A stretch of 26,896 nt of DNA from a virus, in IMG/VR virus record IMGVR_UViG_3300019768_000018, positions 1 to 26,896 of that record. One strand, given 5' to 3'. The notes beneath the pieces are model-generated. The model saw nothing but the letters and a program-made list of their open reading frames with translations. It made no database searches and was not told where the DNA came from. Positions 4,354 to 6,274 of the stretch are shown here, piece after piece (position 1 is the first letter of the stretch; each line of letters begins with the position of its first letter). A program made the translations under genes and the position numbers.

Positions 4354-4385
4354 AAATAAAAACAGAACCCGGGTAAAGGTTCTGC
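4354..4385 (-). terminator. Rho-independent terminator after the tRNA genes
   Basis: The minus strand shows CAGAACC (4378-4384 arm in plus coordinates GGTTCTG), an eight-base loop and GGTTCTG, a 7-bp stem, followed by TTTTTATTTG. It closes the tRNA transcript before the early promoter. Confidence 0.85.
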
Positions 4386-4432
4386 TTTTAAGGTTGGATA
4401 GAATTGAGATAGGATATAAAACATCCTTATAA

Positions 4433-4507
4433 TGGTGCAGATGGTAGGATTCGAACCCACGACCTCACCGCCCCAAACGGTGTCGCATTCCACTTGCGTA
4501 CATCTAC
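4433..4507 (-). tRNA. tRNA-Pro (anticodon TGG)
   Basis: A full cloverleaf can be drawn: acceptor GTAGATG/CATCTGC with discriminator A and an encoded CCA; D arm CGC/GCG around a GG-containing loop; anticodon stem CACCG/CGGTG with loop TTTGGGG, so the anticodon is TGG; five-base variable loop; T arm GTGGG-TTCGAAT-CCTAC. All stems pair except for G-U wobbles. It is the last tRNA in the array, reading minus. Confidence 0.95.
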
Positions 4508-4508
4508 A

Positions 4509-4582
4509 TGGCTACTCCTCTTGGACTCGAACCAAGACTAATAGGATCAAAACCTATTGAACTACCTTTATTCTAAAGAGTA
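4509..4582 (-). tRNA. tRNA-Gln (anticodon TTG)
   Basis: Acceptor TACTCTT pairs with AGGAGTA, discriminator G and CCA encoded; D arm GAA/TTC with GG in the loop; anticodon stem ATAGG/CCTAT with loop TTTTGAT gives anticodon TTG; T arm CTTGG-TTCGAGT-CCAAG. The start with T and G-U pairs are tolerable. It is only one or two bases from its neighbours on each side, so the tRNAs are surely processed from one transcript. Confidence 0.93.
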
Positions 4583-4583
4583 A

Positions 4584-4667
4584 TGGCATACAAGCAAGGT
4601 ATCGAACCCCTTGTCAATGGTTTTGGAGACCATCTGCAACACCTGTTGCAATTAAGACTACTCGTAC
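4584..4667 (-). tRNA. tRNA-Trp-like (anticodon CCA) with enlarged D region
   Basis: Anticodon stem ATGGT/ACCAT with loop CTCCAAA gives anticodon CCA, and the 3' end CTTGTAT-G-CCA pairs with GTACGAG as acceptor (two G-U pairs). The stretch between acceptor and anticodon stem is 27 bases, about eight more than normal, and contains GCAAC-AGGT-GTTGC, a 5-bp stem with only a four-base loop. The T stem around TTCGATA is also weak (two G-U pairs and one mismatch). It may be a divergent but working tRNA or a decaying one. Confidence 0.75.
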
Positions 4668-4670
4668 ATA

Positions 4671-4746
4671 TGGCGACAATGGGTGGACTTGAACCACCGA
4701 CCGTTAGCTTAACAGGCTACCACTCTACCAACTGAGCTACAAAGTC
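4671..4746 (-). tRNA. tRNA-Asn (anticodon GTT) with acceptor mismatches
   Basis: D arm GCTC-AGTTGGTA-GAGT, anticodon loop CTGTTAA (anticodon GTT), variable loop CGGTC and T arm GGTGG-TTCAAGT-CCACC are normal, and CCA is encoded. The acceptor GACTTTG/CATTGTC has two adjacent T-T mismatches (pairs 4-69 and 5-68), and the anticodon stem has a G-A at its outer pair. It is the first tRNA of the array. Identity is clear; full function is less so. Confidence 0.88.
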
Positions 4747-4750
4747 ATAC

Positions 4751-4788
4751 TGCCGAATTATCGGCATTTACACGAACATACTTTCGTG
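4751..4788. repeat. Two adjacent palindromes upstream of the tRNAs
   Basis: TGCCGA-ATTA-TCGGCA (4751-4766) and CACGAA-CATACT-TTCGTG (4771-4788) are perfect 6-bp inverted repeats. In the minus transcript they would form two hairpins between the structured leader and tRNA-Asn. As DNA, the second lies within the -35/-10 region of the plus-strand promoter and could be an operator. Confidence 0.6.
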
Positions 4789-4795
4789 CTATAAT
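4767..4795 (+). promoter_or_regulatory. Plus-strand promoter facing the tRNA-leader promoter
   Basis: TTTACA (4767-4772), a 17-base spacer and a perfect TATAAT (4790-4795) predict initiation near 4801-4802, precisely the left edge of the structured element. It is the only strong plus-strand promoter I found, and a plus-strand terminator lies 120 bases on. There is no plus-strand protein gene to express, so a short RNA is the expected product. The AT-richness makes a chance match possible. Confidence 0.55.
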
Positions 4796-4800
4796 TAATT

Positions 4801-4882
4801 AACTAAATACAAGCCTTAACTGGTGCTACCAACACCGTTAAGCAAGTCCGATATCAACGCTATCGAAAGAGTGTACTTAGTT
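4801..4882 (-). ncRNA. Three-way-junction structured RNA at the 5' end of the tRNA transcript
   Basis: Read on the minus strand, an 11-bp closing helix (4872-4882 with 4801-4811, one G-U) encloses two hairpins: a 7-bp stem (4861-4867/4847-4853, one U-G) with a 7-base loop, and a 10-bp stem with one bulged A (4837-4842/4815-4820 and 4833-4836/4822-4825) with a 7-base loop. Junction strands are four, four and three bases. Both non-Watson-Crick positions are G-U on the minus strand but A-C on the plus strand, which favours the minus RNA as the folded molecule. It starts about two bases after the predicted start of the promoter at 4891-4919. I do not recognise the family. Confidence 0.65.
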
Positions 4883-4890
4883 ATATAATA

Positions 4891-4919
4891 AGTATACACA
4901 AATTATGTAAAACTTTCAA
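4891..4919 (-). promoter_or_regulatory. Promoter for structured leader and tRNA genes
   Basis: Minus strand TTGAAA (4914-4919), 17-base spacer, TATACT (4891-4896). Initiation near 4884 would place the 5' end of the transcript at the closing helix of the structured RNA. It gives the tRNA genes a promoter independent of the late operon, whose terminator lies at 5203-5230. Confidence 0.7.
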
Positions 4920-4944
4920 GTCTGCGTTTATCGTAGGCTTTTTT
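4920..4944 (+). terminator. Plus-strand Rho-independent terminator
   Basis: GTCTGCG-TTTAT-CGTAGGC forms a 7-bp stem with two G-U pairs, followed by six T (4939-4944). On the minus strand the same positions would be A-C mismatches with no T run, so the terminator works on the plus strand. It would end a transcript of about 145 bases from the plus promoter at 4767-4795. Confidence 0.7.
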
Positions 4945-5010
4945 ATATGGTAGAGGGACGCTCTTTAAACTAGATACTGAAATGTATTGTTATTCCGTTA
5001 GATGGAACTT

Positions 5011-5181
5011 TTATTGTCCAGATTTAATCCCGTCCTGTAGTATTCGTACTGGTAACCTTTGAAAATGTTGTAATGGCAGACCTGGAAACGCTTGATTCAT
5101 TGAACGATTGTGCTGATTGGCTCCGATTGTTGTAGTTACTCTCTTAGTAAGGGTAACTCTCTCTTGTCTAATTTCACCCAT
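5011..5181 (-). CDS. Doubtful small ORF (56 aa)
   Basis: An open frame from ATG 5181 to TAA 5011 would encode a basic 56-residue product (MGEIRQERVTLTKR...QAFPGLPLQHFQRLPVRIL). Codon use is not unlike the neighbours, but there is no ribosome site, no promoter visible after the terminator at 5203-5230, and no recognised family. The surrounding 5202-4945 stretch contains a 12-base direct repeat and a 6-bp hairpin (5133-5157), so it may instead be untranslated RNA or spacer. Low confidence as a gene. Confidence 0.35.
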   Translation of the reverse strand: MGEIRQERVTLTKRVTTTIGANQHNRSMNQAFPGLPLQHFQRLPVRILQDGIKSGQ

Positions 5182-5191
5182 TGTTGTAGTT
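5126..5191. repeat. 12-base direct repeat flanking a hairpin
   Basis: ATTGTTGTAGTT occurs at 5126-5137 and 5180-5191. Between them, starting inside the first copy, AGTTAC/GTAACT (5133-5138 and 5152-5157) forms a 6-bp inverted repeat. If the small ORF is real, the repeats encode a TTT(I/M)G peptide in the same frame. Purpose unknown. Confidence 0.5.
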
Positions 5192-5202
5192 GTTTATCAC
5201 TG

Positions 5203-5230
5203 AAAAAAGCCACTAGCGTAAGCTAATGAC
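5203..5230 (-). terminator. Strong terminator closing the late operon
   Basis: Minus strand GTCATTAGC-TTAC-GCTAGTGGC pairs over nine positions (two G-U) and is followed by six T. It lies ten bases after the holin stop and ends the late transcript. Confidence 0.92.
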
Positions 5231-5239
5231 TTAAATTAA

Positions 5240-5428
5240 TTAATCGTCTCTGTCACCTCTGTCTTTAGTAAAGAAGTAAGTTGCAACACTTGTAGCTATC
5301 ATTAAGAATCCTTGTACTATCTTTTCTGCGGTGTCTGATTCTGTATTAACAAACACATAGATCGATAAAACAATAAATACAGCCAATACTACAAATACCA
5401 TTAACCAATCAGTAACCTTTTTATTCAT
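5240..5428 (-). CDS. Holin candidate (two membrane segments)
   Basis: The 62-residue protein has two hydrophobic segments, LMVFVVLAVFIVLSIYVFV (about residues 9-27) and IVQGFLMIATSVATYFFT (about 37-54), joined by a short polar loop, with a charged tail DRGDRDD. Size, topology and position right after the endolysin (8-base overlap) fit a class II or phi-LC3-type holin that makes inner-membrane lesions for endolysin release. No family signature is certain, and the cassette has other membrane proteins that could share or take this role. Confidence 0.75.
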   Translation of the reverse strand: MNKKVTDWLMVFVVLAVFIVLSIYVFVNTESDTAEKIVQGFLMIATSVATYFFTKDRGDRDD

Positions 5429-6011
5429 TTCTTAACGCCTTCTTTCTTTCAATTTCTAAATAAGTGCCAATGTCTAACGGTTCTAAAGGTTCATGATATT
5501 CACTTATCATTCCAGTTTCTAAACCCCATTGAACAGCCTTCTCTTTCCATAATGGTGCTTTTACTACTGTAGGCTCAGGATCGTAAAACCACTCAGGTCG
5601 TTTGCCGGACCTTATGTCTTTGCTAGATAAACCTTCACCTAATTGAAAATGTGGCCTGTCTACAAATTTAGTCCAATTGCCGCCCCAAGTCAATCCCAGC
5701 TTAACCCCTTCTTCACCAGCTATATTAAACGCTCTAATATCGTTCCAGTTTGGTCTACCTTTAGAATTTAATGGTACTACGTCAAATGCTAAGCCAACCT
5801 TATTGCTATGGAATGTAGGGGTTTTTAAGTAAGTTACAATATTACCCGGTTTAGTACGTCCCTGTGCGTATAATGATTGTTGATATTCATCATCACGGAC
5901 TGTAGAGGTGACTAAAAGTGTAACCCCTCTTTTTTTACAGTTTTCAATAAGTTCCTTGCATTTATCACGCATTTTCCAATGTAATAAATTTACGTCTCTT
6001 GAATTAATCAT
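5421..6011 (-). CDS. Endolysin, M15-family peptidase with C-terminal SLH-like segment
   Basis: The start is set at ATG 6011, eight bases after AAGGAG; a GTG six bases earlier is too close to it. The 196-residue enzyme has the M15 (VanY/CwlK-like) fold: TSTVRDDEYQQSLYAQGR (35-52), then TFHSNKVGLAFDVVP with H68 and D77, and DRPHFQL with the second metal histidine. It would cut the peptide stem of peptidoglycan. H68 to D77 is nine residues, two more than the usual HxxGxAxD spacing. The C-terminal WKEKAVQWGLETGMIS...LEIERKKAL resembles one SLH-like wall-binding repeat. ATGA overlap with the upstream gene couples translation. Confidence 0.88.
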   Translation of the reverse strand: MINSRDVNLLHWKMRDKCKELIENCKKRGVTLLVTSTVRDDEYQQSLYAQGRTKPGNIVTYLKTPTFHSNKVGLAFDVVPLNSKGRPNWNDIRAFNIAGEEGVKLGLTWGGNWTKFVDRPHFQLGEGLSSKDIRSGKRPEWFYDPEPTVVKAPLWKEKAVQWGLETGMISEYHEPLEPLDIGTYLEIERKKALRNE

Positions 6012-6274
6012 TTCCACCGCTCCTTTATACTCTCCAGTCGTTTTTCTCCTATACCTTCCACGTGTATTAAATCTTCGATTGTAGCGTTTTTATTGGTGTC
6101 AAGGTAAGTTAACACCCTCTGTGCTAAAACTTCTCCTATATCGTCAATTTCGAGCAATTCTGTGTATGTTATCTCAGAAAGGGGTGGTCTATATAAGTAA
6201 CACCCCAATGGAATACCTAATAATGCAATAATTAATATTGTGATTACGATTTGTTTCTTAAACTTAGTTCGCAT
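6008..6274 (-). CDS. Membrane-anchored helix-hairpin-helix (ComEA-like) protein
   Basis: The 88-residue protein has a basic start (MRTKFKKQ), one membrane segment (IVITILIIALLGIPLGCYLY, residues 9-28) and then a double helix-hairpin-helix domain: YTELLEIDDIGEVLAQRVLTY and EDLIHVEGIGEKRLESIKERW. The GIG turns and hydrophobic spacing match the ComEA C-terminal DNA-binding domain that holds incoming DNA at the outer face of the membrane in competent Bacillota. The topology here (N-in, HhH outside) is the same. It lies in the lysis cassette, coupled to the endolysin by ATGA, with AGGTGATAAA before its ATG. It may bind DNA at the membrane, or be a spanin-like or adaptor protein that reused the fold. 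Confidence 0.8.
   Translation of the reverse strand: MRTKFKKQIVITILIIALLGIPLGCYLYRPPLSEITYTELLEIDDIGEVLAQRVLTYLDTNKNATIEDLIHVEGIGEKRLESIKERWK

What the first reader, a model, noticed from the sequence alone, without database searches (positions are those of the whole stretch)
4801..4882. Compact three-way-junction RNA with no family I recognise, at the head of the tRNA transcript
Seen: an 11-bp closing helix encloses a 7-bp hairpin and a 10-bp bulged hairpin, both with seven-base loops, nearly all of 82 bases paired. Both imperfect pairs are G-U on the minus strand and A-C on the plus strand, which points to the minus-strand RNA. The minus promoter (4891-4919) predicts a transcript starting within about two bases of the closing helix. 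I found no hammerhead core, riboswitch or tRNA match. Inference: a phage ncRNA or processed leader of the tRNA operon, possibly a regulator, stability cap or decoy.
Basis: partly seen in the sequence, partly recalled or inferred. Interest (0 to 1): 0.78.

Follow-up and report, generated by a model that had tools for sequence, protein, structure and literature searches.

The report
Orphan phage antisense-type small RNA
Just before a phage's tRNA genes lies a tiny, tightly folded RNA gene whose hairpin cap, spacing and promoter match a recurrent class of phage small RNAs that lie antisense to the starts of integrase and homing-endonuclease genes, but here the gene it should silence is missing.

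Summary
The minus strand of 4801-4882 folds into the described three-way junction (-25.7 kcal/mol, z -3.5, 0 of 200 shuffles as good), both wobbles are G-U on minus, and a 10/12 sigma-70 promoter sits at 4919-4891. No Rfam family matches.

The element is not wholly without kin. The cap of hairpin 2, GGUGUUGGUAGCACC, recurs in many unrelated phages on stems of different sequence: 33 of 72 non-redundant loci have 5 or more extra pairs, against 4 of 72 for a loop-shuffled control (p=2e-8). Those loci look like small-RNA genes: a -10 box 50-80 nt upstream (the window's is at -60), a terminator-like hairpin, and orientation antisense to the 5' end of integrase, homing-endonuclease or related genes. 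Two resemble E. coli SymR below the cut-off. Antisense sRNAs upstream of integrases were seen in streptococcal prophages (PMC6431027).

Best reading: an orphan SymR-like antisense-type sRNA, perhaps read through into the tRNAs. No target ORF lies opposite; no homologue was found to test the closing helix or hairpin 1.

The parts
4801..4884 (-). Predicted small RNA, about 84 nt, three-way junction; 5' end at about 4884
   Evidence: Fold z -3.5 to -4.0; promoter directly upstream
4891..4919 (-). Sigma-70-type promoter TTGAAA-17-TATACT; -10 lies 60 nt upstream of the hairpin cap, inside the -80..-50 slot used by other loci with this cap
   Evidence: chance of a 10/12 or better site in that slot in this window 0.011
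4872..4882 (-). Closing helix, 5' arm AACUAAGUACA
4801..4811 (-). Closing helix, 3' arm UGUAUUUAGUU; also the U-rich tail after hairpin 2
   Evidence: T-rich tails in other loci
4847..4867 (-). Hairpin 1 (7 bp, loop GCGUUGA); occupies the place of hairpin A of the SymR-like loci
   Evidence: its cap does not recur in hairpins elsewhere (0 of 32)
4843..4846 (-). Spacer CUUG between the hairpins; UUAG, UCAG, CUAG or CAAG in other loci with the cap
4815..4842 (-). Hairpin 2 with the recurrent cap GGUGUUGGUAGCACC at 4836-4822; loop UUGGUAG fits the YUNR U-turn motif
4767..4795 (+). Plus-strand promoter TTTACA-17-TGCTATAAT (11/12, extended -10), TSS about 4802
   Evidence: density of 11/12 sites in the window 6e-5 per nt and strand
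4802..4946 (+). Predicted plus RNA fully covering the element; the place of the target mRNA in other loci, but without an ORF of 50 aa or more
4918..4940 (+). Intrinsic terminator of the plus RNA (9-bp stem, then TTTTTT)
4671..4746 (-). tRNA-Asn(GUU), first tRNA downstream on the minus strand
4433..4582 (-). tRNA-Gln(UUG) 4509-4582 and tRNA-Pro(UGG) 4433-4507
4357..4390 (-). Likely terminator of the tRNA unit (13-nt arms, 92% complementary, then T-run)
   Evidence: sequence

Best explanation
The 82-bp element is a small-RNA gene of the SymR-like, antisense type. From the promoter at 4919-4891 the minus strand is transcribed into an RNA of about 84 nt: hairpin 1, a 4-nt spacer, hairpin 2 with the cap GGUGUUGGUAGCACC, and a U-rich tail that pairs back with the 5' end to close the three-way junction. 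In other phages the same cap tops the terminator-like 3' hairpin of a promoter-driven RNA lying antisense to the leader (and often the ribosome site and start codon) of an integrase, homing-endonuclease or similar gene. There the UUGG loop, a YUNR-type U-turn, would start kissing with the mRNA and limit its expression. In this phage the sense-strand promoter (4767-4795) is still there, but the sense RNA ends at a terminator (4918-4946) without a gene. The RNA is therefore probably an orphan: left behind after the cassette lost its gene, or paired with a non-coding plus RNA, or acting in trans. Partial read-through would also make it the head of the tRNA transcript. Shown by computation: the fold, both promoter matches, and the recurrence, orientation and spacing of the cap class. 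Inferred: transcription, antisense action, loss of the target, read-through.
For: Fold beats all shuffles, minus strand favoured. The cap recurs at the apex of stems of other sequence: 33/72 versus 4/72 for a loop-shuffled control and 0/32 for the cap of hairpin 1. In 44 such hairpins wobbles are G-U in the UUGGUAG sense 55 to 12 (p=1e-7) and that sense is followed by T-rich sequence (p=2e-5), the same strand as here. -10 boxes cluster 50-80 nt upstream in that sense (31 against about 7 expected; the window's at -60). Of 29 genes that begin next to the hairpin in the opposite sense, 12 are tyrosine or serine recombinases and others HNH, GIY-YIG or methylases; none of 19 on the other side is a recombinase. 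36 of 46 have an ORF start within 200 nt, with SD-preceded starts clustered at 31-48 and 97-155 nt. Two loci match symR at E 4e-7 and 7e-8, below its cut-off. A contig not chosen for the cap carries the same arrangement before a serine recombinase. Precedents: antisense sRNAs upstream of four prophage integrases (PMC6431027); SymR overlaps the symE start and RBS (PMC4147584); YUNR loops (PMC6562991).
Against: No ORF lies opposite the element, so the defining target is absent. The window does not match symR. The spacer is CUUG, not the commoner UUAG, and hairpin 2 is A-T rich below the cap with no clean U-run, so it is at best a weak terminator. No relative shares the closing helix or hairpin 1, so covariation for those is untested. 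The cap class was collected with an exact 15-mer taken from this window, so the invariance of the cap is by construction; only flanks, promoters and gene context are independent.
Confidence: 0.55

Rival explanations
1. Structured 5' leader of the tRNA operon: transcription starts at 4884, runs through the tRNAs to the terminator at 4390-4357, and RNase P releases the leader, which protects or matures the transcript.
For: Same strand, no strong terminator between 4801 and tRNA-Asn, plausible operon terminator downstream; no obvious separate tRNA promoter.
Against: Loci with the same cap are not near tRNAs: nearest 693 nt, most have none. A leader does not explain the recurrent cap, its promoter spacing or the opposed plus promoter.
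Confidence: 0.2
2. The plus strand is the functional RNA: a 145-nt sRNA from the 11/12 extended-10 promoter to the terminator at 4918-4946, with the minus-strand fold a by-product of the inverted repeats.
For: Better promoter and a real terminator; the plus RNA folds with z -3.4.
Against: The three-way junction is poorer on plus; wobbles favour minus here and in the class.
Confidence: 0.12
3. The shared cap is coincidental or simply a popular terminator loop, and the window element is an unrelated lineage-specific ncRNA.
For: Only 15 nt of sequence are shared; in cellular genomes the 15-mer is hardly above its reversed control (7 versus 3 hits); no relative of the whole element.
Against: Shuffled-loop control, promoter position (chance 0.011), matching strand polarity, and the same order of promoter, hairpin, spacer, hairpin.
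Confidence: 0.13

Closest known systems
SymR antitoxin RNA of E. coli (Rfam RF01809)
   Same: Promoter, hairpin, short spacer, second hairpin with apex GUGUUGG..CAC, about 80 nt; two loci with the window's cap match its model at E below 1e-6
   Different: The window scores no match; no symE-like or other ORF opposite; closing helix added; loop UUGGUAG instead of UUGGCG
Antisense sRNAs SP119_SR034, SR071, SR086, SR106 upstream of Streptococcus pyogenes prophage integrases (PMC6431027)
   Same: Small RNAs antisense to a phage gene leader, found by transcriptome mapping; the place matches the integrase loci found here
   Different: Their sequences were not compared here; no integrase lies beside the window's element
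C4 antisense RNA of P1/P7
   Same: Small phage antisense RNA acting at a ribosome site through hairpin loops (PMC12197685)
   Different: Encoded in the same strand as its target (own knowledge); Rfam finds no C4 match here
Stable RNAs C and D of the T4 tRNA cluster (from memory)
   Same: Small RNA beside phage tRNA genes
   Different: No sequence or structure comparison made

Membership tests
SymR (RF01809) | Covariance model score at or above gathering (61 bits) | tested here: not met
   No hit in the window at E<=10
SymR (RF01809) | RNA overlaps RBS and start codon of an opposed toxin gene | tested here: not met
   No plus-strand ORF of 50 aa or more at 4736-5676; frames full of stops
SymR (RF01809) | Two-hairpin RNA of about 77 nt with its own promoter and a UUGG loop in the 3' hairpin | tested here: met
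GGUGUUGGUAGCACC-capped phage RNA class described here | Cap on a stem of its own sequence | tested here: met
   Six further pairs CUUAAC/GUUAAG with one bulged A
GGUGUUGGUAGCACC-capped phage RNA class described here | -10 box 50-80 nt upstream in the UUGGUAG sense | tested here: met
   TATACT at -60
GGUGUUGGUAGCACC-capped phage RNA class described here | Terminator function of the capped hairpin | tested here: inconclusive
   Tail GCUUGUAUUU is U-rich (6 of 10) but interrupted; hairpin -12.2 kcal/mol
GGUGUUGGUAGCACC-capped phage RNA class described here | Antisense to an integrase, endonuclease or similar gene | tested here: not met
   No such gene opposite
tRNA or tRNA-like element | tRNA covariance model match | tested here: not met
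Known riboswitch or ribozyme three-way junctions | Rfam match | tested here: not met
Conserved three-way-junction RNA | Compensatory changes in closing helix and hairpin 1 | not testable with these tools
   No homologue of the whole element found

The most novel reading that the evidence does not exclude
A widespread, undescribed class of SymR-like phage RNAs, recognisable by the cap GGUGUUGGUAGCACC, silences mobile-DNA genes (tyrosine and serine integrases, HNH and GIY-YIG endonucleases, methylases) in many phages. In this phage a member has lost its cis target, gained a closing helix, and become a stable trans-acting or tRNA-operon-leading RNA.
Probability: 0.3. Interest if true: 0.75.

Novelty: new variant of a known kind. 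Interest (0 to 1): 0.6.

Why it matters
If the class is real, one short RNA hairpin marks antisense control of unrelated mobile-DNA enzymes across phages. That gives a handle on how integrases and homing endonucleases are kept quiet, and a searchable signature for finding more such genes. The orphan here would show how an antisense RNA outlives its target and may be reused next to tRNA genes.

Tried and rejected
BLAST of the element against phages and plasmids: only chance hits; the best, in a 595-kb phage, looks like coding sequence with no tRNA nearby. Covariance model of the element over capsid- and endolysin-based relatives: none, and those relatives carry no tRNAs. A loop-and-junction pattern in viral and genome collections: fold-inconsistent hits. 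Exact tRNA-Asn stretch: none. A pseudoknot between the UUGGUAG loop and a downstream CUACCA, seen in some lambdoid phages, is not general. The idea that the hairpin works in the sense of the downstream gene was reversed by wobble and T-run counts. Trans targets among the window's own translation starts: best z -2.8 of 36 genes, not significant. Enrichment of the 15-mer in cellular genomes: weak. EGFOA pattern to find syntenic phages: none. Literature on the cap sequence or on hairpins before homing endonucleases: nothing relevant.

Full report
What is there. The window is a whole virus record of 26,896 bases, with tail, head, portal and terminase genes, an ERF recombinase gene and a Terminase_2 gene, all on the minus strand. 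Between the lysis genes (5240-6017) and the early genes lies a tRNA block: Asn, Gln and Pro by ARAGORN. The element 4801-4882 stands upstream of tRNA-Asn on the minus strand. A minus promoter ends 8 nt before it. The element is thus flanked by two promoters facing each other.

Search for relatives. Nothing in Rfam matches it. No close relative of the whole element was found in phage, plasmid, viral-contig or genome collections, nor in 22 records related by capsid or endolysin, which also lack tRNAs.

A recurrent cap. Many hits sit on long stems of quite different sequence. After removing redundancy, 33 of 72 have at least 5 and 29 at least 7 further base pairs. A control with the loop letters shuffled gives 4 and 2 of 72 (Fisher p about 2e-8), and the cap of hairpin 1 gives 0 of 32. 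In an alignment of 22 such RNAs, four flanking pairs show changes on both sides. The invariance of the cap itself is by construction of the search and is not evidence.

What the capped loci are. Read in the UUGGUAG sense, wobbles are G-U 55 times and A-C 12 times, and the stem is followed by a T-rich stretch: terminator-like hairpins with a strand. In that sense -10-like hexamers pile up 50 to 80 nt upstream, 31 against about 7 expected, the window's own TATACT at -60 included; a site of its quality falls in that slot of this window by chance with probability 0.011. Read in the other sense, the next gene is a tyrosine or serine recombinase in 12 of 29 cases, with HNH, GIY-YIG, NUMOD3 and methylase genes among the rest; on the other side none of 19 is a recombinase. 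36 of 46 have an ORF start within 200 nt, in two groups, 31-48 nt and 97-155 nt. In the first group the RNA would cover ribosome site and start codon (for example L042); in the second it covers only the leader. The simplest account is that these are small-RNA genes antisense to gene starts.

Known kin. Rfam's SymR model matches two of these loci, L042 and L069, with E 4e-7 and 7e-8, below its gathering score. SymR overlaps the start and ribosome site of symE and blocks its translation (PMC4147584). Antisense sRNAs upstream of four prophage integrases were found by transcriptome mapping in Streptococcus pyogenes, and silencing of integrase was proposed (PMC6431027). Of four classic temperate phages that I looked at, the three lactococcal ones show an antisense-oriented terminator at the integrase leader, with promoter-like sites of varying quality, and without this cap. 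In a set of contigs gathered for other reasons, one (L419) proved to carry the same cap, a TACAAT box and a serine recombinase. The UUGG loop fits the YUNR U-turn used by sense-antisense pairs (PMC6562991).

Reading of the window. The element has the order and spacing of this class (promoter, hairpin, 4-nt spacer, capped hairpin, U-rich tail), on the strand the class uses. It differs in two ways: the RNA's ends pair to form a closing helix, and no gene lies opposite. A sense promoter is present, but the plus RNA would terminate at 4918-4946. The simplest account is an orphan member: its target was lost, or it now acts on the plus RNA or in trans. Whether it also leads the tRNA transcript depends on how well hairpin 2 terminates, which the sequence does not settle. 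No convincing trans target was seen among the window's own genes.

Limits. There are no transcription data. The class as a whole is better supported than the membership of this one element, which rests on the cap, the strand, the promoter slot and the order of parts.

Noticed in passing
window 4586-4661, minus: Degenerate tRNA-like gene with a CCA anticodon region (Trp-like) and a long D arm, missed by ARAGORN; matches the tRNA-Sec model at 31.9 bits, below its cut-off.
   Followed up: partly
window 5012-5103, plus: Match to the EGFOA sRNA family, 32.8 bits against a cut-off of 37.7, lying antisense to a 56-aa minus ORF (5011-5181).
   Followed up: partly
L326, L033, L328-L331: Lambdoid phages (mEp460, cdtI, SfV and others) carry a conserved structured region with the same cap, in the gene's own sense, between a small ORF and a DNA methylase in the late region; its loop varies among relatives.
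   Followed up: partly
L462, L463, L464 (bIL285, r1t, TP901-1) at about 1230-1340 or 1500-1610: Integrase leaders of lactococcal phages have, on the antisense strand, a strong terminator ending in a T-run, preceded by a TGATAAAAT box: likely unannotated antisense sRNA genes.
   Followed up: partly
L042 2542-2614, L120, L151 and E. coli genomes: Icd-like 'host cell division inhibitor' genes appear to have a SymR-like RNA antisense to their start.
   Followed up: partly
window 4747-4789, minus: Two more perfect small hairpins (CACGAA/TTCGTG and TGCCGA/TCGGCA) between the element and tRNA-Asn.
   Followed up: no
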